DNA of 64,000 nt from NCBI GenBank assembly GCA_963556495.2, contig OY747710.1, positions 22,943,500 to 23,007,499 on the forward strand. Direction: 5' to 3'. Of the stretch, positions 2 to 51,884 are shown one piece after another. Below the pieces are notes generated by a model. That model had not been told where the DNA came from and ran no database searches. It saw only the letters and a program-made list of their open reading frames with translations. The DNA is from Valencia hispanica (Eukaryota > Chordata > Actinopteri > Cyprinodontiformes > Valenciidae). The first letter of the stretch is position 1. Every line of letters starts with the position of its first letter. The translations under genes were made by a program, and so were the position numbers.

Positions 2-3000
2 GACTATTACTCCCTTGGACACAGTGCACTGAAGAGACAGAAGAACAAACATAAGAAGAAGCACCAACAGATGCACATGCAGGACCCAGAGTTCCTAGCC
101 GAACTGGATGAGCTGATCGCTCAGTTCAATGAGGTCCACATCGGACGACGGAGCTGGGCTAGGACTGGACTCGGGCAGGGCTTTGACGGAGGAAGGCGGC
201 ATCATTCCTCCTCTCATTCTCACAGGTCCAACATCTTCCGGATCAATCTGAACGGCTTCTACTCGCCACACCCTACATCCTTCCCGGCAGCTCCTTCGTT
301 CACCCCTCAACCCTTCTATCCCTGCCATTGTAACAGGAAGCTGGACCGTCGGCAGTGCGGCTGCCCTTCAAAGTTCCAGGAAACAATTGAAAACATGGGC
401 TTTTACAGCAGCTACCCACCAGCGCCTCCGTCGCTCTACCACCACCTCCCCAGCTCCTTCCCACTTCCACCCCCTCACCAGTACGCCCCCCATCAGCCCC
501 ACCATGCTCACTTCCTCCTCAATCCAGCCAGATTCCACAGGCGTAGAAGCAGGTTGCTCAGAGAGGGAGCTTTAGGAGGAGAGGTGGAGGGAGATTTAGG
601 GGCTAGCACCAGAGGGTTTGTTTCTGGCCTCTCTTGCAGCTGGGGGAGGAGTGAACACAAACATAAGCACCGTCACCAGCACTGTGAGCGAAACATGGAA
701 ACCGAAGAGGAGTTACAGGATGAGGAGGACGAAGATGCAATGGATAGGGAGCTTTTGGGTGGTTCAAAGACACAATCAGGGTTCATTTTTGGGCAAGTAG
801 AAGGAAGAAGGAAAGGGGGAAAAGGACCCGGAAGCATGCTGTCTAAAGATTCACCCTGGTTACGTCAAAATGGAAGCATTCCCTTCTCCACTGCCACCTC
901 TTCTTCATCATCTTCAACAGAGAGGTACAAAAATACATCTCTCACGTCTTTGGGCCTTGGCTCCACTCACCTGTCTTCCTTCGGAGGAGGCTGGGGCGGT
1001 TTGGGCCAAAGCTGGGCGACATTCGGGAGTCTAGGAAGCCCAGGATTTGGGCTGAACCCAAGCTGGAGAGGCTTCTCCAGGGACAAGCACATGGGTAGAC
1101 TGGCTGAATCAGAGGGAGAGGAAGAGGAAGGCGAAGACGATGTGGACGAGTCACACCTGTATGCTTCAAAACACACCAACCTGTTTACTTCTGCTGCCAT
1201 GTCAGCAGTGGGGAGGGGCCTGAGGAGCGGATTGGCCAGTAGGAACCCTGGAAGTGGAGAAAAGTCGTGGAGGAGGGACGAGCCAGCGTGGACAGAGAGG
1301 AGGGAGGCAGGTGAGGATTCTTGAATGATTTTAGTGGAAAACTGTTGAATCCACAGCTGTCTTCTGTTGTGGCTTCACTGCCACTAAATGTGAATCTATT
1401 TTGAATGCTGACAGCAATCCAGATAAAACGGAGATTGAAACACCATTGAAACACAACAAAAGCAGCCAAATAATGACAGCGAGCTGAGAAAATGGGTTTA
1501 CGCAGCGAGGCTCTTTTCACTCGCATAGTGTGACAGATTTTGTTATTTGCACAGCGCAGAGATGAAACTCCGCCAACCAGCAGCCGTGTGCCCAATATAG
1601 TGACAGCCCTGTTTTTTCTCAGGTGTTGTTGAGCCACACATCAAAGCCTGGAGGGTGCATGAGGAGAAATCAGACTCCATTCTTTTTATAGCCAGTTTCA
1701 GACTCCCTTCCCTGTTCAAGGGCACCCACACAGCCACTCCTCTGAGAAATTGCTTAGACATTACAGTGGTGATCAGAAGTTTACATATATTGACAAAGGG
1801 CATACATCTCATTTGGACTTAGAGCTCTTCACAATTTATTTGAACTCTTAATTTTCCAGGATAAGATGATTCTACAACAAACAACATCAAAAAATTAAAC
1901 AAGAATTGGTTGCAGATGTTTGAAGTTTTTTCAGGTTTTCTCAAATCCACACAAGGTGATGATACCTCAAATATATACATTCAGTCTCATAGGCCAGTTT
2001 AGTCTTACTCAGCTGCCTAACTAATTTTCTTAGATAGATTGGTAAAAAACACAACTAGGTGCTTTAATGGGTACAGTGATCCCAAACAGAGATCAAAAAA
2101 GGTTTTAAAATGATTCAAGTAGGCTGACATTAACATCTGGAACGGACCCAACCCCAACTCTTAGTCCAGATATACTAGAAGTTAGGTGGATTGTGCTTAA
2201 AAGCCAAGTCAGTACTAATTAATCAACCAATTTGATGTTTACATTTGAGCCTGTGTGAAATCTTGAAATTACACAATAAATTCAAATCTTCTCATTTGTT
2301 TTTAGTTGTTTTAGTTTTTCATAGCACAAGTGCCCATTATTTGCTGTTCTTAGACAGGAAACAGGCAGAGAGAAGGGGGAACACATGCAGCAATGGCCCC
2401 AACGTTGGGAACTGAACTGAACCCCTGATGGCTGTGTTGAGGTCTATTGGCTCCTGTGTATGGGATGCCCGCTTTACCTCTACACTGCCTGACATAATTC
2501 TTAGTTTTTAAGTGCATTAAAGATGTGTGTTTTATGTTTCTTCCACTCTGAAACCAAAACAGTTCAAACACATTGCTAAAACTATATAAAATTCTGACTT
2601 CTATATCTTGAGGGGAATCTGCAAGAACATCTTTAAAATCTTCCCAAACTGCAAGCTGTCCTTGCTCAGGGCTGTCCAGCGAAACGCAGTCATTAGTTAA
2701 CCACCATGCCGGCTATTTAAAGCTCGCCCTATTCCTCCCCGCTGGGCCGGCCGGGCCTGTTTGATTTGGAAAAATCCAATAAGGAAAGAGTGGTCAGTCT
2801 TGTCAGTGGCTGAGGAAAATGGAACAAAAAGATGGATGACCTCAGGAAAGATTGATGGAGAACTCAGAGAGGGGTCAGGAATGAGCCACTAAGAATATGT
2901 GTGAGAAAAAAAGGCTGATTTACTTCCTGATCTAACAAAACAAAACAGAAGAAGAATGTTAGGTCATACTTTGTTCTGTTTCCTTTTCCAGTACTGTTTT

Positions 3001-6000
3001 CTGCTTTAACTGAGTGTGCAAAAACAAATGCTGCGCATGAAAGGTATGCATGCCTCACTGTGTTTGTATGCATTATTTTTTTCTCTGTCTGTGTGCAGCT
3101 CGTAAATCACTTTTAATGCGTTTCCCAGAAGTGATCCGGTCAGAGGAAATGTTGTGACTCACCTAATCTGCAGCCCGTCCACATGACTCAGCCCAGACTG
3201 GCCTCACCTCACACCTGCTGGCTTAATCTCTCATCCACATCTGTCTTATTTCCTCTCCGCCACTCATGCACCCTCCCCCTCACCTCCTCTCCCCCTCCTG
3301 CAGGTTTACAAGGTGACTCGAGGAGCCGGGGGCAGCGTAGAAGCGTGCCAACTCCAGACTGCGCTGCGGTGAAAAACAAAAGAGGGCCAGGACGTCCCAG
3401 GAAGCACCCACTGCCCTCCGCTGTGTCCTCCCCTACACGCTCATCTCATCCAACACCGTCCATGTCGCCAGCTGACTTCTTTCTAGAAGCGGGAGGGGGG
3501 GCAGAAGAGGCAGTGCCAGAGAAAAGAGGAGGAGGAGGCAACACAGTGCAGCAGGTCCTGGATCTGGAGTCGCAGGCCCGGAGAAAGAGGGGGCGGAAGA
3601 GAAAACACGGTGACTCTCCGTGCCATCAGAGGTGAACACCGGAGCTGGTTGACTTGACTGTTCAATACAACCACTCGCTGCTGTTATATTAACCCACCGT
3701 TTTCAGCACTGTGTGCTAAACCAGTGCCCTCTATCTCTCTCTTTCTCCTTTACCCTCCCTATCACTCTACCTCTCTGTTTACACTTTCCTTTTAGTTTTG
3801 CCAAGGACATCCCTGAATGTGACATGCATTCTGAGTTTTTCAGCCAGTCAGATGTCGATGAGGCTCCACCCCAAGCAGTAGCCACCCATAGGGAAGAAAA
3901 CAGTGATGGTTCTCCCAGGAAGAATTACCTGAGAGCAGGCCTTTACTCTGATGATTATAAAACTACGGAGTGAGCTGAATGAACTTATGAACACCCTTAT
4001 ATATAAGATATTTAATTTCCATTTTCTTTTACAGTAATGTTTTTTTACCCTGTTTGTCTCAGTCCTCCCGTCCAAGCCCAGAAGAACTGCAGTGAGAGTT
4101 TGGAGTACACACCAGGGGAGCATGAGTACAGCCTCTTACCTTCTCCCATACATGTTGGTGAGTACAGGTTAACCCCACAGTGGGCCCGTCCCACTTCCAG
4201 GTTTAAATCCACTGATCTTCTGACTTCTAACTTCTATGAACTTATACATATTTTATATCACTGGAAGGCAGAGTCTTGTGATTCCAATTATATATGCCAA
4301 TCAAGGATACAATTATAATTAATTTAATCTTATCCAGTGTAATACAAATCATATTACTTGGTAACAATAACACTTAGACATATTATCATTACTCTGGGAG
4401 ACATTTCAGTGTGTTTTCTTTCCAAAGAGACATGTCTCTACTCAAAATGGTGCTCCAAGAACATCAATAATTTTAATTTGGGTATGCGTTTAAAAAAATG
4501 TAGGGAGGAAATTGCAGGAATGTTAATGGCTTAATATCTTGACGAATTATTTTAAACTGTCTTAATCTTCTTTAGGAAAGTACTTGAGGCTAAAGCGAAT
4601 ACACTTCCAACTGCCATATGATGTGATGTGGCAGTGGCAACATAACCAGGTATGGAGGAAGAAACAAAAATTCAAGCAAAAATATTTTTTCTTAATGCCT
4701 TGGATGTAATTCTTTTCTGATTTGGGTACAGCTTCAGCGTCAACCTGCTGTCCCCCTGAAAAGGAAGCGGCGTTACTGTGAGTTTATTTCTTATTTGAGA
4801 CCCTCCACTTCTATCGTAACCTCAGGTAAATATCTGTAAAAAAAAGCCCCAACATAAATTATTATAATGGAGGTGAAACTCCTTGCTGCAAATTTCTAAC
4901 AGTGAGTTTTGGATTTATTTTATCTACCTATATAGACTTGGGTCCCCATCCAGCCTCCTTATCGCTCCGCTCACTGCTTTAACTGTATATGTGAGCAAGT
5001 AGGCCAGTAGCCATTATGTTGGGACATTTCCTGCCTTTTTAGGATCAACATTACACATCTGCCTTACTTGAATGGTATGTTCTCTTGGCTTTTCCATTTT
5101 GAGAAGTGGCTAAATGTGGGCCTCTGTGTCGCATCATATTTATGCCACATCCTTCTCCTTGTGCTTAGTGCCAAGATACATTTGGTTCCCAGGGTCTTTG
5201 AAAGTGAAACAGGCTCACAGCATTACAGATCCTCCACTTTACATATCAGTGGACAAATGGTGCTATTCACAAAGTCTGTCTTTTTTTTTAATTGCCAGAC
5301 CAACCTTTGTCTTTTGCCGAAAAAATCAATCTTAGTCTGTCTTGATCAAAGCATACGCTTCAGAATGTCACATTTGTGTTTGTAATGGTAGGACAGAATT
5401 TTTTTTTCTTGGCATCTTTATATACATAGATATATCTTTAAGTTACTTATATAATATCATAAATTTAGTGACCAAAGATGACACTGCTTTCTGTAGTTCT
5501 CATCGAGTTTTTGAGATTTGTTTCTATTTTACAATCCTTATTTGTATATCTGGTGGCAAGATAAACTTGGGTCCTCATTCAGCCTTGATTGTCACAGTTC
5601 GACCTTTACATTTTTGCTCTGTCTGTAACAACTTTAGAAAAGAAGCTATTTATATTTGGAGCAATTTCATGACCGATAAACAACACCACAAATCTGACTC
5701 ACTTTAATGGTATGTTCTATTGTCTTTCCCATTTTCCCAAAAACCCAGACCTCTGTATCACATCATATTTATACCCCATCCTCCTCCCTATGCAGAGTGG
5801 TAACATGAACTTGGTCCGTAGGGCCTTTGGAGGAGAAACAGCCCACAGTACTATGGCTCCTCCACCATGCTTAACAGTGGGCCTTTGTTGCTTTTCCAAC
5901 ATACTCATTCTTTGTTTTATTCTAGACCCACTTAGACTGTATAATATATTTTTGCCTCAAGAAAAGAGGAAATGAAAGATTATGTATATTTATTTACAAA

Positions 6001-7449
6001 TTAAAAATCCTTTAGCTGGATATATTTTTATGTGGTTGCTCTTTGGTGTGGCATTATTTCCTGGTATTGTTTTATTTTTCCCCCTAGAAAATAAATGTAC
6101 TATGTACTATTTTAAAAGCTGCATTTAAAAATGAAATTATTTCAAGGTTTTTTTACACAGCTTTACCAGGGAAGTCTGGTGTGTCACATTGGGATCTTAC
6201 TGCGTATCTTGATTTAAGCAGGTCGCCTGAAGCAGAAGACTCCATCTTCCCAGCAAATACTGGTGGGTTTTGTGGCTTGAGCTTTTTTTTAATTCCAGCG
6301 CAGATTTATTACTTTGCTTCCATTTATCTCCTTATGCCTGTATTTTACTGAACAGGAGGAGAGGTCTGGAGACATCGCCAGCTTGTTCCCTCACCTCGAC
6401 ATGGAGCCTCTGACCTGCAGCGAGAGGTATAGATTTCAAAATAAACTGCTGTTAAACTCATTTCAGCGTCAGTGGGGTAACTGTCTCTCTCTGTGTGTGT
6501 CGGATCCAGGAGCTTTGTGGTGAAACACCATGTGTTCCTCGTCAGGAACTGGGAGCTCGTGAGAGACCGACAGATCCGAATGAGGATAGAGGGGGGCAGA
6601 GCCGGAGACGAGGAGGGAGAGGACACGCAGATCATGTCCTGCGACGGCACTAGTGGGGACGACAACCACATCAAGTCAGGTCCATGAAGCAAGTGTGTGT
6701 GTTAGTTTTTGTTTCTGTAGGTGTTTGTGGTTGAATCTTGCACATTTTCATTTTTTTGTTTTGCTGTACATCTGTGTGGATTGTAATGTATGTGTGCATG
6801 TACAGAATGTGTGCGCTCATCCGACTTCATGTTTGGCTTGTCTTTCCATATCATACTCAGCAGCCCAAACTAAGTGGTTTTCCAACCACAGAATGCAGCC
6901 TGCAGAAATGTTTCCCTATTTCTGTCATCCAATGCTGGAGTCCAAGAACTCAGCAGGCATCGACTTTCTCCATTAGCAGTGAAACCACACACTTTCATCC
7001 AGCAGACAGAAACCAAAAAGAAAACAAGAACACATATAATTAAAATGTAACCGTAAAAGATTATGTTCCTGCCTTCACTAATGTGCAGAATGCTGTTTGA
7101 CCTGCAGATTGCTCAGTGGGGGTGGAGGTGACGGTTATCAGCAGCAGTGACCCCCTCCACCAAAGTCAGGACACCTCCAGCTTGCTCATTGCCAGCCCCA
7201 GCGTGAGTTAACGAACATCAGACCACCCACATGGAGAAATAAGTATTTTAATACAGTAAAGATTTTTTTTAAAAATCTGCTTTTGCAGTTATTGTACATT
7301 TTTGTTCTCTCCAGCCCACCAATAGCCAGAGCAGACAAGAGGAGGAGGAAGAGGAGGAGGAAACAAAACGAAGGGAAAGAAAGGTCTGCAGCAGAGAACA
7401 GAGAAGAAAACGGTTGAACGATTTACTTTTGACCCTGCAGCATTCATAA
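2..7449 (+). CDS. ash1l: ash1l-type gene, 3' part, lacking SET, bromo, PHD and BAH domains
   Basis: Exons read directly: 2-1310 (enters from the left edge), 3304-3631, 3796-3969, 4063-4157, 4576-4649, 4732-4777, 6222-6262, 6356-6426, 6510-6679, 7108-7202, 7315-7449. All junctions are GT/AG and phase-compatible, giving 845 residues and a TAA stop. ASH1L landmarks in order: a His/Lys/Pro-rich large exon; an AT-hook ([11 protein letters not shown]) at about 3378-3410; [29 protein letters not shown]; a [15 protein letters not shown] segment carrying the MRG15-docking FxLP; then [14 protein letters not shown] and DDNHIKS, which in human ASH1L lie between the SET and bromodomain. Human ASH1L is an H3K36 methyltransferase of 2969 residues. 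Here the AWS-SET-post-SET block should fall between 4777 and 6510, and the bromodomain, PHD and BAH after 6679, but none is present. The end ([18 protein letters not shown]) resembles the basic helix near the human C-terminus. Identity as an ASH1L relative is firm; whether this is a diverged paralogue, a decaying gene or an assembly artefact is inference. Confidence 0.87.
1311..3303 (+). other. ash1l-type intron with Tc1-like remnant
   Basis: Intron between the large exon (donor CAG|gtgagg) and the AT-hook exon (acceptor ctcctgcag). About 1752-2290 resembles the decayed end of a Tc1-like element, opening with the fish transposon-type phrase ggtgatcagaagtttacata. A short GC-rich patch with a GGCCGGCC core sits near 2744-2757. 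No coding sequence is seen in the rest. Confidence 0.55.
3378..3410 (+). other. AT-hook coding segment in the ash1l-type gene
   Basis: The codons spell [11 protein letters not shown], with the canonical GRP core at 3390-3398. AT-hooks bind the minor groove of AT-rich DNA. A second basic patch, [11 protein letters not shown], lies near the end of the same exon and could act as an AT-hook-like or nuclear localisation element. Confidence 0.8.
4605..4616 (+). other. FxLP (FQLP) MRG15-docking motif codons
   Basis: TTC CAA CTG CCA encodes FQLP inside RIHFQLPYD. In ASH1L the equivalent FxLP motif just upstream of the AWS domain binds the MRG domain of MRG15 (MORF4L1) and activates the methyltransferase. 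The motif survives here although the SET domain it should regulate is not in the gene. Confidence 0.75.
4936..5930. repeat. Diverged tandem duplication (~630 bp unit) in the intron where SET exons are missing
   Basis: The phrase acttgggtcc recurs at 4936 and 5565, and ggtatgttct at 5074 and 5709. Many shared words lie between, such as gcatcatatttat against cacatcatatttat. The two copies are heavily diverged, so the duplication is old. The second copy is shorter. No SET-like codons are seen in either. Confidence 0.55.
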
Positions 7450-12411: not shown

Positions 12412-13172
12412 GGGTGTATTTACAAACAAGCACATGCAGGAGGTGGACAACAGACGGATACCGGAGGGGCACGCAACTATATGTAACAGTGGGACTCGGG
12501 AATGTCTACAGGCTACGTTACACCAGAGAGAGAAAAAGGGGAGGAGGAGGCTTTTTGTTACACGCACACAGCAAAAGAGCAGGATGTGCTGACACATGAA
12601 AGTGCTCACATCACGTCTACTTTCACTTCCACACACACCCTCACACTTTCAGAACCCAGATAGATAGAGACCTGTTCTTTTATTTTTTTTACAACTTGGG
12701 ATCAATAAATAGTACATCCAATAAATTACCAGCTTTGACATAGAAAAATCAAAATGAACAACTTTATTTGTCCAATAATATTCAATCTGAAGGTATTTTA
12801 TTACTATCCATTTGATGGTACTTTATTATGATAATTATTTACAATATGAGCGTGTAATGGTTTCATTTACTGCTACCGGACCTTTGCTGTACTGCCAGTA
12901 ACATCATGCTACATGGCACTGGCGTACGCAAAAAAAGAAGAAAAAAACCCCGCAAGAATTGAGCTCTCCCTGATTTGTCAGTGGTAAAGAAACTTTCCTA
13001 AAGAACCAAATCCAGACATCTTAGAGTCTCTTCATCTGGTAACTCTAAAGTGTAAGATATTTTGCAATGCCTCGGATGTACACGAAACTAAAATGCTGAT
13101 TTTATAACAAAACAGTTCAACGTTTAAGCATATGCATAGTCGTTGATACATCTAGAATCCAGAGATAAACGA

Positions 13173-13280
<108 letters not shown>

Positions 13281-13859
13281 GACACAAAGCAACAGGTTTC
13301 ATGGGTGCCATCAGTACAAACATACCCCTTCCACCATCACCACTATCATTAATATCAATGATTATGATCGGGAGACCTGGTGGGAAGATAAATACAACAG
13401 ATGAGAACCAGCCACCAAAACTATAAGCTTTCACTGCAGCATTTTACATCACTTCAAGGTTTTTGTTTTCGCTGCAATCATATTTTAGTTCGGATAGTGT
13501 TACACAAGAGCTGAACATGTTTTTGTGAGGTTTCTCAAACCACAAGATGCGCTACAGCTTGCTTTGTCTCATATTTCATAACTGGGAGGGTTATATCAAT
13601 GTGTCACTCATTTAAAGCATTCATGCTAATGCTAAAATGCATTCAGTGTTCAAAATTAGGAGCTATAGGTAACAATTTTCAGAAAAATACAGTCCTGCAG
13701 AAGCCTTGAGTCATCCCTAGTTTCCTTTACAGTTGCCTTAAACTCAGCCAGACCTTCCTGTAATCTTTTACATAGTGGTCCAAATTAGTAGTTCTTCAGA
13801 ATTTCATTCGGTTTTTATTAAACTTTGGCTGCTTTTTTACTAATTTTCAGTCCAGACCC

Positions 13860-24500: not shown

Positions 24501-27500
24501 GTGTCGCCTTGCTTCTCCAAATTGCTGCAGTAGCGTGAGTCAAAATTATATGTCGAGTCAAAGTCCCCCAAGTTGGTTTTGGAGTCACTGACATATTTAT
24601 AAGCTGAATGTGAGTTTTCACTGAGAATGTCTCTGTAACACTGAGGAGAGTCTGCACCATAATCAGCCAGGGAATCATTAAATCCAGAGCCTACAAGAGA
24701 GCTGGAGTCGTCTCTGTGGATGCAAGTCGAGCCTGCAGCAGCAGGACTCCATTGTTCGCTGGCCTGTTTGTCGGAGGACCACCGATCTGCGAGAAGCTGC
24801 GAGCTATGGAGGTCAGCGTGGGTGGGAGGGAGGGCAGAGTGCAGGAAGTAGGGTTGGGAGGATCGGGCAAGGGACAGCGGGGGTGAGGAAACTGTTCGAT
24901 TCAGCGCGTTAAGGGGGGAAATATTAATCAGGACAGGGCAGATGCAAAGCCAAGCAACACACATACAATGGATACAACCGAGTGGGATGGATGGGTGATA
25001 AAAAAAACAAAGTGAGATAATGTGGCAAAGAAATGGGAAGGAGAGAAAGAGAGAGAGAGATGTAGAGAATGTTAGTGTAAAACAGGAGAAAAATGCACAA
25101 TTCTGACAGTATTTTACCAGAGATCTCCATCACGTCTAGTAATAAGGCACTTAAACATGGCTGACATTTGAGAACCTACCACAGGAGACAATGAAGCTGT
25201 TTTATGAAGATCACTTTCACACGCTTTCATGTAAGAGGGCAGTTTATCAGAACAGAGGGTGATCCTGTGACAGTAAAAACATAAATCCTGAACTATTCTC
25301 AACCTGTCCCACCTGTGATATTTAGACTGCAGGTAAGTGAATATTAAGCACAGCTGTCAGTGCATAGGTTGCATTTGTTTTTGTTTTTCCAAACACAAAT
25401 AATGGGAAATCTGGAAGAACCTGAAACTTGAATTCTATCTTTTGACCAGCAGATGGCAGCTTTAAACACAGATCTTTAAATTTTCGGATTTAAAAAAAAG
25501 AAGCTACAGACACAAACTTCAATGCATTTTGTTGGGGCTTTATGTGATATAGCAACACAAAGCAGTAAATAATTTTAAACTGGACAGCAAATGATACATG
25601 GCATTAAATGTAAAATGTTTTACAATAAAATGCATATGGATTCAGTTCCCTTTACTTTGATACTTCTTAATAAAATCGAATGCACCCAATAGCTCCACGG
25701 TTCACATGTGTGCAAATATATTTCTGCATAAATCCAGCCTGTCTATGAAGGCCTCGGAGGTTTGTTAAGAGCTAATTAGTGAACAAACAGCATCATGGAA
25801 ACCAAGAAAGACACCAGACCGGTCAGGAATAAAGTCGGGGAGAAGTTAAAGCTTTGAACATCTAAAGGAGCAATTCATCATCCAAAAATGGAGAGGATAG
25901 TGTACAGCAAACCCACTAAAACATGGCTGTTAACCTTAAATTATGAGATGAGCAGGGAGAGCATTATTCAGAGAAGCAGCCAAGAAGCTCACAGTGACTC
26001 TGGAGGAGCTGCAGAGATCCCCAGCTCTGGTGGAAGAAGTTGCTGAGAGATAACTATTAGTTTAGCCATCCAAATTAACTTTTTAGCCTCTATGAAAAAT
26101 ATTATGAAAATTATTGTATTTTACATGTAGGCATAGGACTCCATACATATACAGTCGGGCAAAAAAGTATTTGGCAGCCACCGAAAAAGATGAGAGAGCT
26201 CTGTAATTTCACCATAGGTACACTTCAACTGTGAGAGACAGAATGTAAAACAAAAATCCAGGAAATCCCATTGTATGATTTTTGAATTATTTATTTGTAT
26301 AATGGTGCAGAAAAGAAGTATTTAGCACCAACAAACAAAAAAGAATTCTGGCCCTCACAGATCTGTTACTTCTTTTTTAAGAAGCTCTTCTATCCTCCAC
26401 TCGTTACTTGTATTAATGGAACCTGTTTGAACTTCTTATCTGTATAAAAGACACCTGTCCACACAATCAAACAGTCAGACTCCAACCTTCACCATGGCCA
26501 GAGAGCTGTAAAAGGACACCAGGGACAAGATTGCACACCTGTACAAGACTGGGATGATCCCTTCTACAATAGGCAAGCAGCTCGATGAGGAGAGATCAAC
26601 TGTTGGAGCAATTATTACATGGAAGATCTCACCTCATGGGGTCCACATCATCTTGAGAACGGTGAGGAAACAGCCCAGAACAACACAGGGGAACTGGTCA
26701 ATGACCTGAAGAGAGCTGGGACCACAGTAACAAAGGTTACTAACACACTACATCATCATGGATTCAAATCCTGCAGCGCTCAAAAGGTCCCCCTGCTTAA
26801 GCCAGCACATGTCCAGGCCCGTCTAAAGTTTCCCAGAGACCATCTGGATGATCTAGAAGAAGATTGGGAGAATGTCATGTGGTCAGATGAGACCAAAATA
26901 GAACTCCTTGGTATAAACGCCACTCATCGTGTTTGGAGGGGGAAGAATGCTGAGTTGAATGTCAAGAACTCCATACGCACTGTGAAGCACGGGGGTGGAA
27001 ACATTATGCTTTTGGGGTGCTTTTCTGCAAAGGTACCACGACTGATCAATATTAAGGAAAGGTTAAATGAGGCCATGTATAGTGGAATTTTGGGCAAAAA
27101 CCTCCTTCCATCAGTGAAAGCATTGAAGATAAAACATGGCTTGATCTTCCAGCATGACACTGATCCCAAACACACCGCCCAGGCAACAAAGGAGTGGCTA
27201 CGTAAAAAGCATTTCAAGGTTCTGGAGTGGCCTAGCCAATCTCCAGACCTCAATCCAATAGAGAATCTGTGGAGGGAATTGAAAGTCTGTGTTGCCTAGC
27301 AACAGCCCCAAAACATCACAGCTCTAGAGAAGATCTGCATGGAAGAATGGGCCAAAATACCAGCAACAGTGTGTTTAAACCTGGTGAAGACCTACAGGAA
27401 TCGTTTGACCTCTCTTATTGCCAACCAAGGTCACATTACAAAGTATTGGGGTGAACATTTGTTTTTGACAAAAATTTATTTTCTGCACCATTATCCTTAT

Positions 27501-30500: not shown

Positions 30501-33500
30501 TTCTGGATGCAGAGCAACGAAATGTGAAAAACTGAAAAGGGTACGGATACTTTTGTAAGAATTTCTGTGTTTTTTCAGCTAAAAGCTTATTGGCAATTAC
30601 CCTGTTGTAAATAAAAACTATTTTAGTTTGCCACATTTTATCCCTGCTATTTTGTATAGACTCAAATAAAGAAATTCGAACAGTTTCTGCCAATGTGACA
30701 GCCTGCTAGTAACAAAGTCTCTTTAGATCAAATTGGTTCTTTTCTTTTTCTAGGGCTTAATGGGAAAGTGTGCATGAAGGTCCAATTAAAAATTGGGTCT
30801 TCATGCATGAAATGACAACTGCAGAACTACACTCAAGACCACCATGAGAAATGACTTCAAGGCTTTCAACTGTATTAAATTGAAATGTCATTGTTATTTG
30901 TACTGTAGACTCACCAGAAGGTCTTGATTCAAAAGTTCTCCCTCCATCGGCCCGGCCTCTCACCTCCATTTCCTCCTTCCCTTCTTCTATCTTCCTTTCC
31001 TTCATCTCTTGCTTCCCTTCCCCCATCTCCCTGTTGTGGCCCACGTTCCACAGGCTGCTGTCACTGACTGAGCAGCCAATCTTCTGCGACGGGCACAACT
31101 CCAGCCGCCCGCCCTCCTTGTCAGCTCTCTGCAGCATCTCGTTCAAGGCGGCCATGGAGGTGAGGGCTGGGGGCGGCTGCATGAACAGGGCCTGGGCCTG
31201 TGAGGTGTACTCCCACTGGCTGCCGTCGCTGCCAGCCTTCTCCCTCCTCCACCTCAGGTTGTAGAGTATATCCGGGTCGGGGGTGATGACCGTGGGGTCG
31301 GGCTCAGGATCGGTGATCACCTTCGTGGGAGGGGAGGCGTTCTTGCTGCGGAAACGAAGCTCTTTAAACGTAGTCACCTTTGGACCAGAGCCCACAGACG
31401 AGCCTGATGAACTGAGCTTCTTTGGGATTTCAGTGGTGGATTTTCTCTTCTCCAGTACTGGGAGCTGTGGTGGGGCTTCGCACTCGGGTGTGAACGCTAT
31501 AAGCCAATCAAAGCGCTCAGGTTGCTCAGAGTTAGCAGGTAAAGTGCTGACTTTGGGGGGTGCTAAGGAAGAGGGAATTGGAGGAAGAGGGCGAGGAGGT
31601 GGAGGAGGGGGAGGAGAATCCGGTAACTTAGTTGGATAAGAGAAATTCTTTACTGTAGCTTCGTGTGGATTACTAAAACTTGTGCTGTAGTAATGGTCAG
31701 TGACCAAAGCAGTGTTCTTCCTCCTTCTTCTTGCAATCTCAGTAAAAGAGGTGGTCCTTTGTCTGTCTTTGTTTTCCCCCTCCTTATTGCCTTCTTCAGA
31801 AGCTTTTCCGTCTCCATCCGTTTTGCCTGTGCTGTTTTCCGTCTCTGCCTCCCCGTCCTGTAATCTGAACTCTCTGGTCTCCAGAGATCTGGATGTAAAG
31901 GGTTTATCTGCTTCCTCGTCCAGCTCCCCAACACAGACACCGAGCTCGGGGCTGAGTTTGAGTAGCTCGGCTTGGGTCAGTCCAGCAAGCATGAGCAGCT
32001 TCCGGATCTCCACGTCCAACGTGTGGAAGGAGGGGGGAGGGGGCAGGGCAGGGGGAGGTGGTATGGTGGGGGGTGAGAAGGAGCAAGTCACTGAGATGAC
32101 AGGTGGAGGAGGTAGGGGTGGAGGGCGTGTGGTGGGTGGCGGAAGAGAGAAGGGGGTCTTTTCCTGTTCGGCTTGAAGAGCAGCGAGGCGCTGTGCCTCC
32201 TTCCTGGCAAGGTGTCGCTTTCGAGGTGGAGGGATGGGCGGGGTTGGCGTGAGAACGGACGGAGGTGGGGAAGGAGTGGTGTAGAGGCTGAGGTAAGGGA
32301 CTGGTTTGGAGGCGGGAAGAGGGGGGATGCACGGTGGAGAGGGAGGGAGGGGCTTCTCGCATCGAAACGTCGAGAATGTGGGGGAAGAAGAGTTGGGGGA
32401 GAAAGTTGTCAAGGTGGGGGAGGTGGTGACGGCCATGGAAGTGGTCTCTCTACTGATGTTGATGTAAGTGTGGAGGTCGGAGCTCACGCTGGCATGACGG
32501 GCAGGAGGTTTGGGGGGTCTGGGTGGTGGCTCGATGGGGGAAGGGGTGAGGGAGTCCGGAACAAAGGGATCTTCACAGTCCGATGGAGCGGTGAGGTCAA
32601 CCCCGGCGTCTGAAAACTCCTGAGATCCTTCCATTGTTCCATCGCGGGTTTTATACAACTTCCAGGGAATGTCGATGTTTCCCATTTCATCCATGATGTC
32701 TGAGAGGTCCTGCTCCTCCAGGTCCTCAAGATCAAATCCCTTCTCGTGAAGTCTGGCGATGTAAGCTAGCTTCACCTCCCTGTTCACTTTTTCCAAACGA
32801 TCCAGGTGATCTAGACGATCCCTGAGTACATCCCAGTGCTGCTCCCCTTCCAGATCCCAGCGAGCAACTTGGATAACCTGGCTGAAGCGCTCCATTTTCC
32901 CAAACTCCCCTACAGACTCTAAGAAGTCAAGCAAATCTAGTTTGTTAGCGTCAGAGTCGCCTTTTACTCCCAAGTAGTCGGGAGAAGGTGAGTCGAGCGC
33001 AGAGGGGTAGCCCTCGTCGGGAGAGCAAGAAGCAACTGGGGAATAGGAGGTTAGGGAGAAAGGGTTCTGGTTAAGTGGAAGAGATGAGGGAGGTTTGAAC
33101 TCAGGGAATTGGTCTTTGGGGTTCAATGCGGCACACAGTTGCTCCTGGTCCTGTGAGGAGCACATGGAGGCGCACTGATCGGCACAGTCGGACTCCAGGT
33201 CGGAGCAGGAGCTGATGGAAGTGGAAGAAGATGAGGTAGAGGAGGAGAGCGAGAATTCCAAGAGGGATGGAGGGCAGTCGCAGCATGACGGGACCAGGGT
33301 GTCATCATCATCATCACTATCTGTCTCGTCGCCCTCATCATCATCAATTGCAATATCTCTGCTGCTCTCTTCCTCCTCATCTTCTTCGTCTACAGTTTTC
33401 TTGTTGTCCACGTCTACGTTTTCATCTGCGATCTTTACATCGTTTTCCAGATTGGCAGCAGACTGGGCGAGGGGCTCCGCGTGTGAAGGAACCGGCTCTT

Positions 33501-34044
33501 TGGCCTCCATCCCGTCACCCTTGTGTGCTAACTGAACCACAGGAGGAGGAGGAGGTAGCTGCAGCTGCTCCCTGATGGAGACAGTGTTGTTGTTGTTGTG
33601 GTTATGGTTGAACATGCTATTGTTGTCCTGAGGGGAGCGCCCATCGCAGCACAGACAGGGGAGGCTTGGCTCGTTGCAGTTTGGATCCAGAGGGAGGACG
33701 GATGGCAGCGGCAAAGGAGGGGCAACGACCTCTGGCGCGATCTGGGTCATCACAGATGGTCGAGTGCTTTTCGGTTTGGGTTTGGCCGATCTGGAGACTG
33801 TGGCACCTTGTTTCTGAGAGCTCATTCTGGACTGGATTACTGGAGCTCGTGGCTGTGTACCAGTCCTGCTCCTGGAGGAAGCAGCAGGGGCTTTAGCAGC
33901 ACGCCGTGGGGACAAAGTGGTGATTGTGTTCATGTTTTTATCCTCCTTCTGAAAACTAGGGCCACGAAGCTTGGACCCAGCTGAGTTAGCGGTCCGCCTG
34001 CTGGCGTCAAAGCGTCGCGGCTTTGGACCCTGGGAGGACTGCAT
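15519..34044 (-). CDS. rusc1: RUSC1 (NESCA), RUN and SH3 domain-containing protein 1
   Basis: Coding exons, 5' to 3' on the minus strand: 34044-30915, 24786-24052, 21864-21742, 21649-21573, 20464-20290, 19955-19850, 19763-19717, 19341-18851, 18761-18520, 17502-17335, 15684-15519. All junctions are GT/AG and in phase, totalling 5460 nt = 1819 residues plus stop. The RUN domain (about residues 1330-1513) spans [57 protein letters not shown] and [14 protein letters not shown]. The SH3 domain is the last ~54 residues, [11 protein letters not shown] to [14 protein letters not shown], as in human RUSC1. The first exon encodes about 1043 residues: an acidic tract, poly-Pro SH3/WW-type ligands (for example [13 protein letters not shown]) and [10 protein letters not shown]. 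Human RUSC1 is 902 and RUSC2 1516 residues, so this N-terminus is long. RUSC1 is known as an adaptor in TrkA, TRAF6 and NEMO signalling. Position between ash1l and fdps supports RUSC1 rather than RUSC2. Confidence 0.93.
15956..16612. mobile_element. Foldback/MITE-like element with inverted ends
   Basis: The left end reads cagaggtgggtagagtagcc and the right end ttactacccacctctgtc, near-exact inverted copies, with internal words such as tactcaagtaagagtag repeated in both orientations. It lies in the last rusc1 intron. A fragment of the same family lies at 63392-63510. Confidence 0.7.
17122..17161. repeat. Perfect 16-bp inverted repeat (hairpin)
   Basis: Arms 17122-17137 (caatttttgttgaagg) and 17146-17161 are exact reverse complements around an 8-base loop, inside a rusc1 intron. 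Probably a transposon vestige; no function is implied. Confidence 0.85.
20075..20190. repeat. AT-rich palindromic tract
   Basis: It contains a duplicated ttcagcatatattttat unit followed by its inverted copy (atatatgctgaata), then TA/AATA runs. It lies in the rusc1 intron between exons 20464-20290 and 19955-19850. Confidence 0.8.
21865..24051 (-). other. rusc1 intron, no other feature recognised
   Basis: Intron between exons 24786-24052 (donor cga|gtaag) and 21864-21742 (acceptor ctgtaag). AT-rich, with short low-complexity runs. I see no gene and no confidently assignable repeat family here. Confidence 0.6.
26152..27667 (+). mobile_element. Nested Tc1-family transposon, 1516 bp, TA target sites
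   Basis: Both ends carry about 30-bp inverted repeats starting CAGT (left cagtcgggcaaaaaagtatt, right the inverted copy with one mismatch seen), flanked by TA at 26150-26151 and 27668-27669. Tc1/mariner elements insert at TA and duplicate it. The element interrupts an older Tc1 remnant, so it arrived later. Confidence 0.88.
26619..27299 (+). pseudogene. Tc1-type transposase, C-terminal catalytic part (N-terminus broken)
   Basis: The 226-residue open stretch carries the DD34E triad: D90 in MWSDETK, D180 in [12 protein letters not shown]215 in NPIENLW, with 34 residues between the last two. It also has the family words [10 protein letters not shown] and [14 protein letters not shown] candidate original start (ATG at 26494) runs into TAA after five codons and lies in another frame, so the DNA-binding N-terminus is disrupted and the protein is unlikely to be active. 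Transposases of this family cut and rejoin the element at its inverted ends. Confidence 0.88.
28785..29440 (+). mobile_element. Tc1-like transposon remnant
   Basis: It opens with agctgtgaaaaagtatttgc and carries degenerate transposase-leader text (catgaagcggtctgaagaaa, agaaacacattgag-like words, caggagtgaccaacctacca). Stops in every frame. Lies in rusc1 intron 1. Confidence 0.6.
30185..30560 (+). mobile_element. Tc1-like transposon fragment
   Basis: Conserved family words cggtggtagcatcatgctgt, cttgtgctagaatggcccag and tacagacctaaatccaact are followed by the 3' tail ggatacttttgtaagaa. It lies just downstream of the first large rusc1 exon, within the intron. Confidence 0.7.
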
Positions 34045-34169
34045 CGTGGGAACGGGAGTGTTTAAGACTCTCAGATACTTCTGTTGCTATAGAAACTGGT
34101 GCTGGAAATTCTGGTCGGATCCTGGCGATGACGCACCGTAAGTCACATCTTGGCTTGACTCCCAAGATC
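34045..34169 (-). other. rusc1: rusc1 5' UTR part of the first coding exon
   Basis: The stretch from the acceptor ttgatgttgcag (exon start 34169) to the ATG at 34044-34042. The start was chosen because the large open frame begins here and the N-terminus [13 protein letters not shown] is basic and open throughout. Confidence 0.55.
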
Positions 34170-40497: not shown

Positions 40498-42563
40498 TCA
40501 CTTGTTCCTCTTGTAAATCTTCTTGGCAAAGTTGAGAAAGATTGAGTGAGGGAGGTTCTGAGCGTGCCGAGCGATGAGTTTCTGCAGCCGCGTGTAACTC
40601 TCCTCTTCATACGTGTGATACAGCGTTGGCATTTGTAGGGCGTCGTACAGCTTTTTGACCTTCGCCACGCTGGCTTCATCCTTTCGCCCGTAGCAAGCCT
40701 GAAGAGGATGTGAAAACATCAACTCTTGATACGGTTTAGTGAAAAAGGTTCCCACAGGGTGGAATCAGAATGTTATCGAGCAGAATATCACTCTGATTTA
40801 CTTTGAAAACAAATACTGCAGTTATTCGCTGTCTTGAGCTTCACAGATTAAATACAATTTAGCTAATGTCAGAAATGTCCTGCAGCCAAACAGCCAGAAC
40901 TTTGTTGTTTCGCCCTCAATGGAAACGGATTATTTTAATAATTAATTACTAAGGAGAAAAAAAAACAACCTAAAAGCAGCCCATACCCACAATTAACTAT
41001 GTTGGAGGATCTGAGGCTGTGGGCCTGATTCTATTTCAAATACATTGGGAACATTGTTACAGTGCATAAGATTATAAAGAGGGTTAGGGTTAAAGACATA
41101 CCAGGACATAGGAAGAGATTAAATGGCAACACATGGATGCAAATTGGCATGAACTGGTGAAAATTAACCTAAAGCTTCACAGACAGCTGCAGTAACCACT
41201 TGCCAAACCAAAAATAAGGCTGTTCTTCATTGTGAAAAGCGCAGTGCACCAAGGGAAAAAAAGCCATCATGTGAATCTTGAACGATCTTCTGATTTAACT
41301 GTTTCCACAGAGCTCCAATGTGGAATAGTGGTTAACAAAATGTTCTATGCTGCGATGGACTGGCGACCTGTCCAGGGTGTACCCCGCCTCTCGCTCCTTG
41401 ACCGCTGGAGATAGGCACCAGCCCCAACCGCAACCCTGCATTAGGATGGGTGGCTACAGAAAATGGATGGAAAATTTTCTATGAAAATCTGGATATGGAT
41501 GGGTAGATGGATGGACTTTAAATTTGGCATTTTATTTTTAATCCATATTGCCCAGCCCCAACTTCCTTTAATTTTTCCGAAACAGTTGTATAATGTCTGA
41601 TGACATGTACGACTTTTCCTTAAATCAAAGATAACATTCTGATATCTTCAAATAGGACCAGGAAATGTTAAATTTTGACAAAAGTAGTTGTTTGTTTTAT
41701 ATTGTGATATACATCAATAGAGTGATATGAAAGATATCGTGATATATATTTTTTTCCATATTGCCAAGACCTATTGAGTAATATTTCTGACGAACAGGAT
41801 TGTATCAGCTGCAATTGAAAGTTTTTATTAAACCGTTGATCTTCTGAAAGTAAACAAGCAGAAACAGACGAACCAGTGGTATACTATAAACAGGTGGAAA
41901 ATTGCTAACATAGGGAAACTGGCATAAGCAGTCTGTGGGTGAACACCGTTTATGTCTGGTTGAAATCACAAATCTCACCTCCAGAAGTGATCTCTGGTCA
42001 GGAGTCATCACTTCCAGAGCTTTCACCACCAACCAGCTGCATTTGTTGTCCTGGATGTCTGTCCCAATCTTTCCAGTCACAGCAGGGTCACCATAACAGT
42101 CCAAGAAGTCATCCTGCAGAATCAAATGTATAAAAAGGTTTATTATCACAGCAGACATGGCAGCATGTTAACTAATCAGTGAGAAAACTGATTACATTAA
42201 TAACTACCTGTATTTGGAAGAACTCTCCCATCTCCAGTAAGATGTTTTTTGCATTACTGTGTTCCTCTTCGCTGTCAATTCCTGCCTGCAGAAGCGAAGG
42301 TACAGCATGTAAAAGAAACCTGCTACATTCTTTCATTACTTTAGAAGGCCAGGCTGTGCCGTCTTATCTTTTTCTGGCCTTCTCAATGAAACAATTGTGC
42401 ATTCTTTAACGTCCTCCTCTTACATTATCAATATTATTGTTGTGGTTAATGACTGCACAATACAAGAATACTCACTCACCATGTACATTGCAGAGGCCAC
42501 TGGGAGGTAAAACGAGTAAAATGCTGTCTTGTATTTCACAATTGCTTTATACCTGGAGTGAAG

Positions 42564-51130: not shown

Positions 51131-51327
51131 TAAAATTACTTCAATATACTTTATTAAAAAATATATTAGTATGAATGTATCACTATAATGGCTGAAGATT
51201 CCATGTATCCCTTATTTAAATAATAAATCAAATGTAAAAATATCAGCAAAATTAATCTGGATCCAGCAAAGTTAGTGCTGGATCTCTTAAATCCATCCAT
51301 CCACCCATATTCTATGGTGGGATATAT

Positions 51328-51522
<195 letters not shown>

Positions 51523-51884
51523 GTACCTGTCCGGTCCAGTTACCTTCACTGCCCCGTATACTGGTGGGGAATTACATCTGCAGCTGTGAATCATGCTGAG
51601 ATCAGCTTGCAGTGACCACACCATCTCAGACAGTCAACGTTTGAGAAGTGTTTGAGAGACGTGGTTTATTGCTTATTAGCTTGAAGTTATTGCTGTCAGT
51701 GGAGAATGAGCCATGAATAGTGACATTGAATTTGCTTGTTTGTTTGGCTTTTGTTTTTAGGAATTTGGATCATATTTGATTATCTGTCATTCAAAAGCTA
51801 AAATGTTTAGGCTTAACTGGGTTGTTACATTCTAATAAGTCTGTCTAGTTATAAGCATTTGACTAGATACTTTGATATAATAGT

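What the first reader, a model, noticed from the sequence alone, without database searches (positions are those of the whole stretch)
2..7449. An ash1l-type gene that lost SET, bromodomain, PHD and BAH but stays in frame
Segments that in human ASH1L flank the AWS-SET-post-SET block (HFQLPYD before, [14 protein letters not shown] after) are joined by exons 4732-4777, 6222-6262 and 6356-6426 with matching phases. After DDNHIKSD, where the bromodomain, PHD and BAH should follow, two small exons lead to a stop. Eleven exons keep one open frame of 845 residues with consensus splice sites. That argues for a gene maintained without its catalytic and reader domains, perhaps a teleost-duplication paralogue acting as a scaffold or competitor. 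I know of no description of such a form.
Basis: partly seen in the sequence, partly recalled or inferred. Interest (0 to 1): 0.9.

Follow-up and report, generated by a model that had tools for sequence, protein, structure and literature searches.

The report
ASH1L twin gene without its enzyme
Many bony fishes keep a second copy of the chromatin gene ASH1L that has lost its enzyme and reader domains but still carries the two short motifs by which ASH1L holds its partner proteins, although databases often label it a methyltransferase.

Summary
Confirmed. The 11 exons splice into one open frame of 845 residues. Upstream DNA completes the gene: 12 coding exons, ATG to stop, 1963 aa. No remnant of the AWS-SET-post-SET or bromodomain-PHD-BAH blocks was found within 114 kb. 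A second ash1l with all these domains (25 exons, 2933 aa) lies on another chromosome. The SET-less form recurs in 77 listed proteins from 73 named species, pike and salmon to tuna and medaka. With the window gene they form one side of a tree against 113 SET-bearing rows (support 100). What survives includes the docking parts of the ASH1-MRG15-Caf1 (AMC) complex: the MRG15-binding FxLP motif in 78 of 78 rows, and the Caf1/RbAp48-binding motif, with its key arginine in all 75 rows that hold the motif. AT-hooks also persist. Best reading: an ancient duplicate, probably from the teleost genome duplication, that lost catalysis before pike, salmon and spiny-rayed fishes separated. It was kept as a non-catalytic platform for MRG15 and RBBP4/7, scaffolding them or competing with the enzyme. 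Docking and competition are inferred, not tested. My paper searches listed no description.

The parts
2..1310 (+). 3' part of the large coding exon (whole exon C12:22940810-22944809)
   Evidence: 1346-codon open frame
3304..3631 (+). coding exon with AT-hook-like [11 protein letters not shown] (about 3372-3404) and [10 protein letters not shown]
   Evidence: AT-hook column entropy 0.27 in 78 rows
3796..3969 (+). coding exon ([16 protein letters not shown] block)
   Evidence: block conserved
4063..4157 (+). coding exon, 95 nt, phase 2->1, same length and phases as exon 5 of the SET-bearing copy
4576..4649 (+). coding exon, 74 nt, phase 1->0, with the MRG15-binding FxLPxx(hydrophobic) motif at 4605-4625
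   Evidence: PDB 6INE, 6AGO; F, L, P in 78 of 78
4732..4777 (+). coding exon, 46 nt, phase 0->1, corresponds to exon 7 of the SET-bearing copy (LYKRPDVPLYKKIRS); the last exon before the lost AWS-SET
4778..6221 (+). intron where the AWS-SET-post-SET exons are missing
   Evidence: no remnant by tblastn
6222..6262 (+). coding exon [13 protein letters not shown], probably the 3' remnant of the post-SET exon (RLKEKRKSKHQL in the other copy)
   Evidence: weak match E=10; entropy 1.45
6356..6426 (+). coding exon corresponding to exon 13 of the SET-bearing copy; ends with the conserved acidic residue of the Caf1-binding motif (6422-6424)
6510..6679 (+). coding exon with the Caf1/RbAp48-binding motif [14 protein letters not shown] (6511-6573)
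6680..7107 (+). intron where the BRD-PHD-BAH exons are missing
   Evidence: no remnant by tblastn
7108..7202 (+). coding exon, poorly conserved
   Evidence: entropy 1.26
7315..7449 (+). last coding exon; C-terminal motif [16 protein letters not shown] (7393-7440), resembling REAQRERLNKILLDLL of the SET-bearing copy; TAA 7447-7449

Best explanation
This is a SET-less duplicate of ash1l, most likely from the teleost whole-genome duplication. Shown: the AWS-SET-post-SET exons and the bromodomain-PHD-BAH exons are gone, the rest is open and spliceable, and the same form recurs across euteleosts beside a complete, SET-bearing ash1l. Inferred mechanism: the AT-hook-rich N-terminal part places the protein on DNA. 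The FxLP motif binds the MRG domain of MRG15, and the Caf1-binding motif binds the histone-H4 pocket of RBBP4/7. It thus builds a catalytically empty counterpart of the AMC complex that brings or holds MRG15 and RBBP4/7 at chromatin. Because MRG partners are thought to bind one surface exclusively, it would also reduce the MRG15 available to activate the SET-bearing ASH1L.
For: Complete ORF and structure. SET-bearing copy in the same genome; its AWS, SET, bromodomain, PHD and BAH by Pfam. 77 listed SET-less hits without a precomputed Pfam domain, 73 named species. hmmscan of two of them gives 0 families, of two SET copies gives all five domains. All 78 SET-less rows on one side of a 191-row tree, support 100; 17 and 9 of these rows in slower trees, 100 and 100/100. 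FxLP-to-Caf1-motif distance 74-116 residues in 75 of 78 SET-less rows against 260-315 in 118 of 122 SET rows. Same junction in 16 relatives. FxLP residues F, L, P in 78 of 78; Caf1-motif Arg in all 75 rows that hold the motif; acidic residue at the Glu position in 77 of 77 (72 Glu, 5 Asp). Sequence match to the ASH1L chains of PDB 6INE and 6AGO that stops just before the lost part. The motifs are experimentally defined in Ash1/ASH1L: passages of PMC5963871 and PMC10148413. Exclusive MRG surface: passages of PMC8701324. Contigs that look like spliced transcripts: P0018, P0027 and P0046 hold 1550-2026 aa on 6.7-7.7 kb, whereas the window gene spans 13 kb.
Against: No binding, expression or knockout data. 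Lys1608 of the Caf1 motif is replaced (Leu in 67 of 76 rows), and the Glu is Asp in 5 rows. Three of 78 rows lack the Caf1 motif in their model: P0004 and P0062 miss part of the exon, P0076 stops before it. Both motifs are less constrained than in the SET copy (18 species pairs: FxLP exon 0.85 against 0.99, Caf1 motif 0.84 against 0.97 mean identity). Several N-terminal blocks are as conserved or more so, so the docking motifs need not be the main function. The BAH domain, which helps fly ASH1 bind chromatin (PMC8426247), is gone. Cichlids and pufferfish are not among the SET-less hits listed, so some lineages may lack the gene.
Confidence: 0.62

Rival explanations
1. The main role is AT-hook and N-terminal chromatin or DNA binding, independent of MRG15 and RBBP4/7. 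The docking motifs are kept only as lesser contributions.
For: N-terminal blocks such as INVSKRGTIYMGKRRGRKPK and EQDSRPLKKRKARRPSWTKL are the most conserved windows; the second is even more alike among SET-less than among SET copies (0.95 against 0.81). [quoted passage not shown]
Against: The FxLP tetrapeptide is invariant in 78 of 78 and the Caf1 motif is held across the clade, while exons 7 and 10 beside them drift. The BAH partner of the AT hooks is lost.
Confidence: 0.2
2. It is purely a dominant-negative brake: it titrates MRG15 away from the SET-bearing ASH1L and has no positive role of its own.
For: MRG15 strongly stimulates Ash1/ASH1L fragments (about 30-fold fly, sevenfold human, PMC5963871 passages), and MRG partners are thought to be mutually exclusive (PMC8701324 passages).
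Against: A pure sponge needs only the FxLP segment; here AT-hooks, the Caf1 motif and many N-terminal blocks are also conserved over about 1963 aa.
Confidence: 0.15
3. A decaying pseudogene that happens to be open.
For: Faster evolution than the SET copy (0.62 against 0.78 mean identity over 18 species pairs) and a long stem branch (0.78).
Against: Modelled and alignable in 73 named species, same junction in the 16 relatives aligned, transcript-like contigs, conserved blocks.
Confidence: 0.01
4. Assembly or gene-model error: SET and reader exons were missed.
For: 52 of the 77 SET-less hits are named ASH1L or ASH1L-like methyltransferase first.
Against: No N in the window or the 40 kb upstream; no remnant in 114 kb; the same absence in 77 models and in transcript-like contigs; the domains are all on C16.
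Confidence: 0.01

Closest known systems
ASH1L / Ash1 (SET2-family H3K36 methyltransferase, trithorax group)
   Same: Exon phases around the motifs, AT-hook-rich N-terminal part, FxLP MRG15 motif, Caf1-binding motif, C-terminal [13 protein letters not shown] motif
   Different: No AWS, SET, post-SET, bromodomain, PHD or BAH, so it cannot be a methyltransferase of this kind; Lys1608 of the Caf1 motif replaced
AMC complex (Ash1-MRG15-Caf1)
   Same: Both published docking motifs, for MRG15 and for Caf1, are present
   Different: The catalytic subunit would be empty; complex formation untested
NSD3-short (SET-less isoform of an H3K36 methyltransferase; listing and starts of abstracts seen, adaptor role recalled)
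   Same: A form of an H3K36 methyltransferase that lacks SET and is thought to act as an adaptor
   Different: NSD3-short is an isoform of one gene; here a separate duplicated gene lost the domains
Fly ASH1 deleted for SET (transgene, PMC8426247 abstract and passages)
   Same: Shows that ASH1 has SET-independent functions
   Different: Artificial construct that keeps the BAH domain; rescue of the null was partial

Membership tests
ASH1L gene family (homology) | Sequence and exon-phase homology to ash1l | tested here: met
Histone-lysine N-methyltransferase (SET) | AWS-SET-post-SET catalytic core | tested here: not met
   Pfam 0 families in both parts of the protein; no remnant in 114 kb
ASH1L reader module | Bromodomain, PHD finger, BAH domain | tested here: not met
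MRG15 (MRG-domain) ligand | FxLP(x)2-3(hydrophobic) motif | tested here: met
   Motif in 78 of 78 rows; definition from PMC8701324 passages
MRG15 (MRG-domain) ligand | Physical binding to MRG15 | not testable with these tools
   Needs a binding assay
Caf1/RbAp48 H4-pocket ligand (CBM) | Residues E1591, V1595, F1601, L1602, R1604, N1605, K1608 | tested here: inconclusive
   Six of seven kept in the window, K1608 replaced by Leu; residue list from PMC10148413 passages
Teleost-duplication ohnolog | Duplication before the teleost radiation | tested here: inconclusive
   Euteleost-specific duplication rejected (p 3.75e-6), clupeocephalan-specific not rejected (p 0.077); no shared neighbour gene in the 120 kb of C16 compared; both chromosomes carry a SET exon that I recall as KMT2B-like
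Functional gene | Expression and splicing | tested here: inconclusive
   Transcript-like contigs in unnamed sources; nothing for this species

The most novel reading that the evidence does not exclude
Euteleost fishes evolved a dedicated, gene-encoded non-catalytic AMC complex. An ASH1L duplicate stripped of both its enzyme and its histone readers joins MRG15 and RBBP4/7 on AT-rich chromatin and sets how much catalytically active ASH1L-MRG15 exists. This would separate the methyltransferase-independent functions of ASH1 into a gene of their own.
Probability: 0.45. Interest if true: 0.85.

Novelty: new variant of a known kind. Interest (0 to 1): 0.76.

Why it matters
Whether ASH1 works through its methyltransferase or through its other parts is open; fly work points to essential SET-independent functions (PMC8426247). 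Here evolution has separated the two: one gene keeps everything, the other keeps the docking parts without catalysis or readers. Knocking out each copy in medaka, which has both (P0058, P0171), would address the question directly. In one search, 52 of 77 database clusters of this protein are named first as ASH1L or ASH1L-like histone methyltransferase, which they cannot be.

Tried and rejected
Pseudogene and assembly error: rejected by the upstream completion, the second copy and 77 orthologous models. Hidden remnants of SET, BRD or BAH: none by tblastn. Local synteny of the two copies: the 120 kb around the C16 copy share only ash1l and repeat-like matches with the 114 kb of C12, so ohnology rests on the tree and on the weak hint of similar SET exons on both chromosomes. 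A search for paralogues of the neighbouring 1109-aa ORF never ran (tool busy). dN/dS was not computed: no coding DNA of relatives was obtained and the two copies average 38% identity in the same species. Structure prediction was not attempted: the proteins exceed the 1200-aa limit, and the window protein is spliced and reaches outside the window.

Papers: searches, and 68 for NSD3-short. I saw listings of at most 20 papers each with the start of their abstracts (alone matched 3,384 papers). No listed title or abstract start describes a teleost SET-less ash1l. One search for the words ash1la, ash1lb and ASH1L-like matched two papers, neither on fish by its listing. PMC2200798 (passages) lists one zebrafish ash1l, on chromosome 19. 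PMC9454494 (passages) lists ash1l once among tilapia bromodomain genes. The library holds open-licence papers only.
Full report
What was checked. The window is C12:22943500-23007499 of a 1.29 Gb genome. The window begins inside the first of them. Forty kilobases upstream show that this exon belongs to a 1346-codon open frame. One earlier coding exon with the ATG lies at C12:22937905-22938567, and the large exon spans C12:22940810-22944809. The whole protein is 1963 aa from 12 coding exons with no internal stop. It has AT-hook-like sequences (RKRGRPK, KKRGRPPK, KRRGRKPK, GPGRPRK) but no Pfam family: 0 at E<=1 for the last 845 aa and 0 at E<=0.1 for the first 1118 aa.

The second copy. AWS and SET hits and a search with 183 residues of the window protein pointed to C16:19.51-19.55 Mb. 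Reading that locus gives a complete ash1l: 25 coding exons, 2933 aa, no internal stop. Its 756 residues from exon 7 to exon 23 contain AWS, SET, bromodomain, PHD and BAH by Pfam. The window exons 4063-4157, 4576-4649 and 4732-4777 have exactly the lengths and phases of its exons 5, 6 and 7. Exons 6356-6426 and 6510-6679 correspond to its exons 13 and 14 (same phases, each 3 nt longer), and 7315-7449 resembles the 3' part of its exon 24. What is missing is exons 8-11 with most of 12 (AWS, SET, post-SET), exons 15-23 (BRD, PHD, BAH) and the last exon. tblastn of the two lost blocks against 114 kb around the window gene gives nothing better than E=2.2. The only interpretable trace is [13 protein letters not shown] in exon 6222-6262 against GRLKEKRKSKHQL of the post-SET exon, itself at E=10.

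It is old and conserved. A protein search with the C-terminal 344 residues returned 397 proteins, the best 120 listed. The first 77 have no precomputed Pfam domain and stand for 73 named species (three are unnamed 'lgn' contigs, one species occurs twice): cyprinodontiforms, many other spiny-rayed fishes, cod relatives, Lampris, Aplochiton, Esox, Dallia, Umbra and Salvelinus. In 52 of the 77 the first name is 'histone-lysine N-methyltransferase ASH1L' or 'ASH1L-like'; 22 are 'uncharacterized', 'hypothetical' or 'unnamed'; 3 have no name. hmmscan of the Xiphophorus and Esox SET-less proteins finds 0 families, while the SET copies of Esox and medaka show AWS, SET, bromodomain, PHD and BAH. Several species hold both forms (Esox P0073/P0131, Umbra P0077/P0132, medaka P0058/P0171, Lampris P0076/P0126, Syngnathus typhle P0051/P0117). 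The distance from the FxLP motif to the Caf1 motif is 74-116 residues in 75 of the 78 SET-less rows (the other three lack or break the Caf1 motif in their models) and 260-315 in 118 of 122 SET rows. Sixteen relatives aligned across the junction with the window protein show the same order (FxLP exon, a P-VPL-type exon that is degraded in Umbra, a short variable stretch, the FPHLDMEP exon, the Caf1-motif exon) from pike to percomorphs; Aplochiton and Myripristis models end early. This argues for one ancient loss.

Tree and age. A FastTree of 191 rows separates all 78 SET-less rows from 113 SET-bearing rows (support 100). A quick tree of 41 rows (17 SET-less) and a careful tree of 31 rows over 907 columns (9 SET-less) put the SET-less rows in one clade (100 and 100/100). 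In the careful tree that clade lies outside the 13 clupeocephalan SET copies (100/100). It is joined, weakly (84/90), with the SET copies of Megalops, Scleropages and Arapaima; the SET copy of another osteoglossomorph, Brienomyrus, falls outside this group on a long branch, so the link is unsure. A duplication inside euteleosts is rejected (p-AU 3.75e-6); one at the base of Clupeocephala is not (p 0.077). This fits the teleost genome duplication with loss of SET before the euteleost crown, but does not prove it. A second protein search, best 120 of 483 listed, shows for Otocephala, Osteoglossomorpha and Elopomorpha no SET-less form of this kind: the rows carry AWS, SET, and BAH or bromodomain calls, except one Sinocyclocheilus model (P0128) with AWS and BAH but no SET call. 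Zebrafish was listed with one ash1l in a 2008 survey (PMC2200798 passages).

Is it expressed? Nothing can be said for this species. In the protein database, P0018 (2026 aa on a 6680-base contig), P0027 (1966 aa on 7725) and P0046 (1550 aa on 7164) contain the FxLP, Caf1 and C-terminal segments in one protein. The window gene spans about 13 kb, so these contigs are most simply spliced transcripts (inference; what 'lgn' denotes is not stated by the tool). Other 'lgn' proteins, about 1350 aa, look like the single large exon in genomic DNA.

What is kept. Exon 4576-4649 carries FQLPYDV. The match to the ASH1L chains of PDB 6INE and 6AGO covers 48 and 39 residues and stops just before the lost part. 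In fly and human the FxLP motif, about 40 residues before AWS, binds MRG15, which stimulates Ash1 and ASH1L fragments about 30-fold and sevenfold (PMC5963871 passages). The refined motif is FxLP(x)2-3 plus a hydrophobic residue, and partners are thought to exclude each other (PMC8701324 passages). In 78 rows (77 hits plus the window) F, Q, L and P are invariant and the hydrophobic position is Val (76) or Ile (2). Exons 6356-6426 and 6510-6679 carry the Caf1-binding motif, mapped in fly to residues 1582-1616; E1591A and R1604A mutants did not bind in pull-downs (PMC10148413 passages). The window keeps E1591, V1595, F1601, L1602, R1604 and N1605 and has Leu for K1608. Three models lack the motif or part of it (P0004, P0062, P0076). 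The Arg is kept in all 75 rows that hold the motif (one search prints 76, one of which is P0004, whose model skips the motif core). The Glu position is Glu in 72 and Asp in 5 of 77. Lys1608 is replaced (Leu in 67 of 76).

How constrained. The docking motifs are not the most conserved parts: several N-terminal blocks rank above them (FxLP window fifth, Caf1 motif fourteenth among non-overlapping 20-residue windows). Across 18 species that have both forms, the SET-less copy evolves faster overall (mean pairwise identity 0.62 against 0.78) and in both motifs (0.85 against 0.99, 0.84 against 0.97), yet far above its own average there. One N-terminal block (LKKRKARRPSW) is more conserved among SET-less than among SET copies, 0.95 against 0.81.

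Interpretation. The pattern is loss of catalysis and histone reading with retention of the two partner-binding motifs and the DNA-binding hooks. The most economical mechanism is a non-catalytic docking platform for MRG15 and RBBP4/7 that can also compete with the SET-bearing ASH1L for MRG15. Shown: gene, structure, second copy, conservation, clade, motif retention. Inferred: binding, chromatin placement, competition. In fly, deletion of SET alone is not lethal (rescue of the null is partial) while loss of AT hooks together with BAH is (PMC8426247 abstract and passages), so SET-independent roles are plausible. The loss of BAH weakens any simple transfer of that result.

Surroundings. The minus strand downstream carries a polyprenyl-synthase stretch at 41808-42167 (Pfam; FDPS by position), an unassigned 1109-aa frame at 30760-34086 (RUSC1 by recalled gene order) and FAM189B-like pieces near the window end and in C12:23007649-23014690 (recalled resemblance). 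This matches the recalled human order FAM189B-FDPS-RUSC1-ASH1L.

Noticed in passing
Genome G000, repeated hits; L003: Near-identical SET-domain matches with internal stops (10 of 429 bases, 16 of 456 bases) are scattered over the chromosomes and look like dispersed copies. L003, a separate single hit, reads like KMT5A (recalled).
   Followed up: partly
6680-6687: Reading through the donor of exon 6510-6679 gives IKSGP then a stop. 15 of 77 SET-less models end in SGP in this way, suggesting a shorter alternative 3' isoform that still holds both docking motifs.
   Followed up: partly
large exon, protein residues 1003-1022: SESHSDETLPSDSGIGTDNN is among the most conserved blocks in both copies and contains DSGIGT, which resembles a beta-TrCP-type phosphodegron (recalled motif).
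   Followed up: no
C16:19580164-19591419 (L039, L040): Minisatellite-like array that reads as SHGHMVTWSHGHMVARS repeats downstream of the complete ash1l.
   Followed up: no
13120-13443 and 51169-51633: Simple repeats that translate as runs of IY.
   Followed up: no
26589-27296: Tc1/mariner-type transposase remnant (Pfam HTH_Tnp_Tc3_2 and DDE_3).
   Followed up: no
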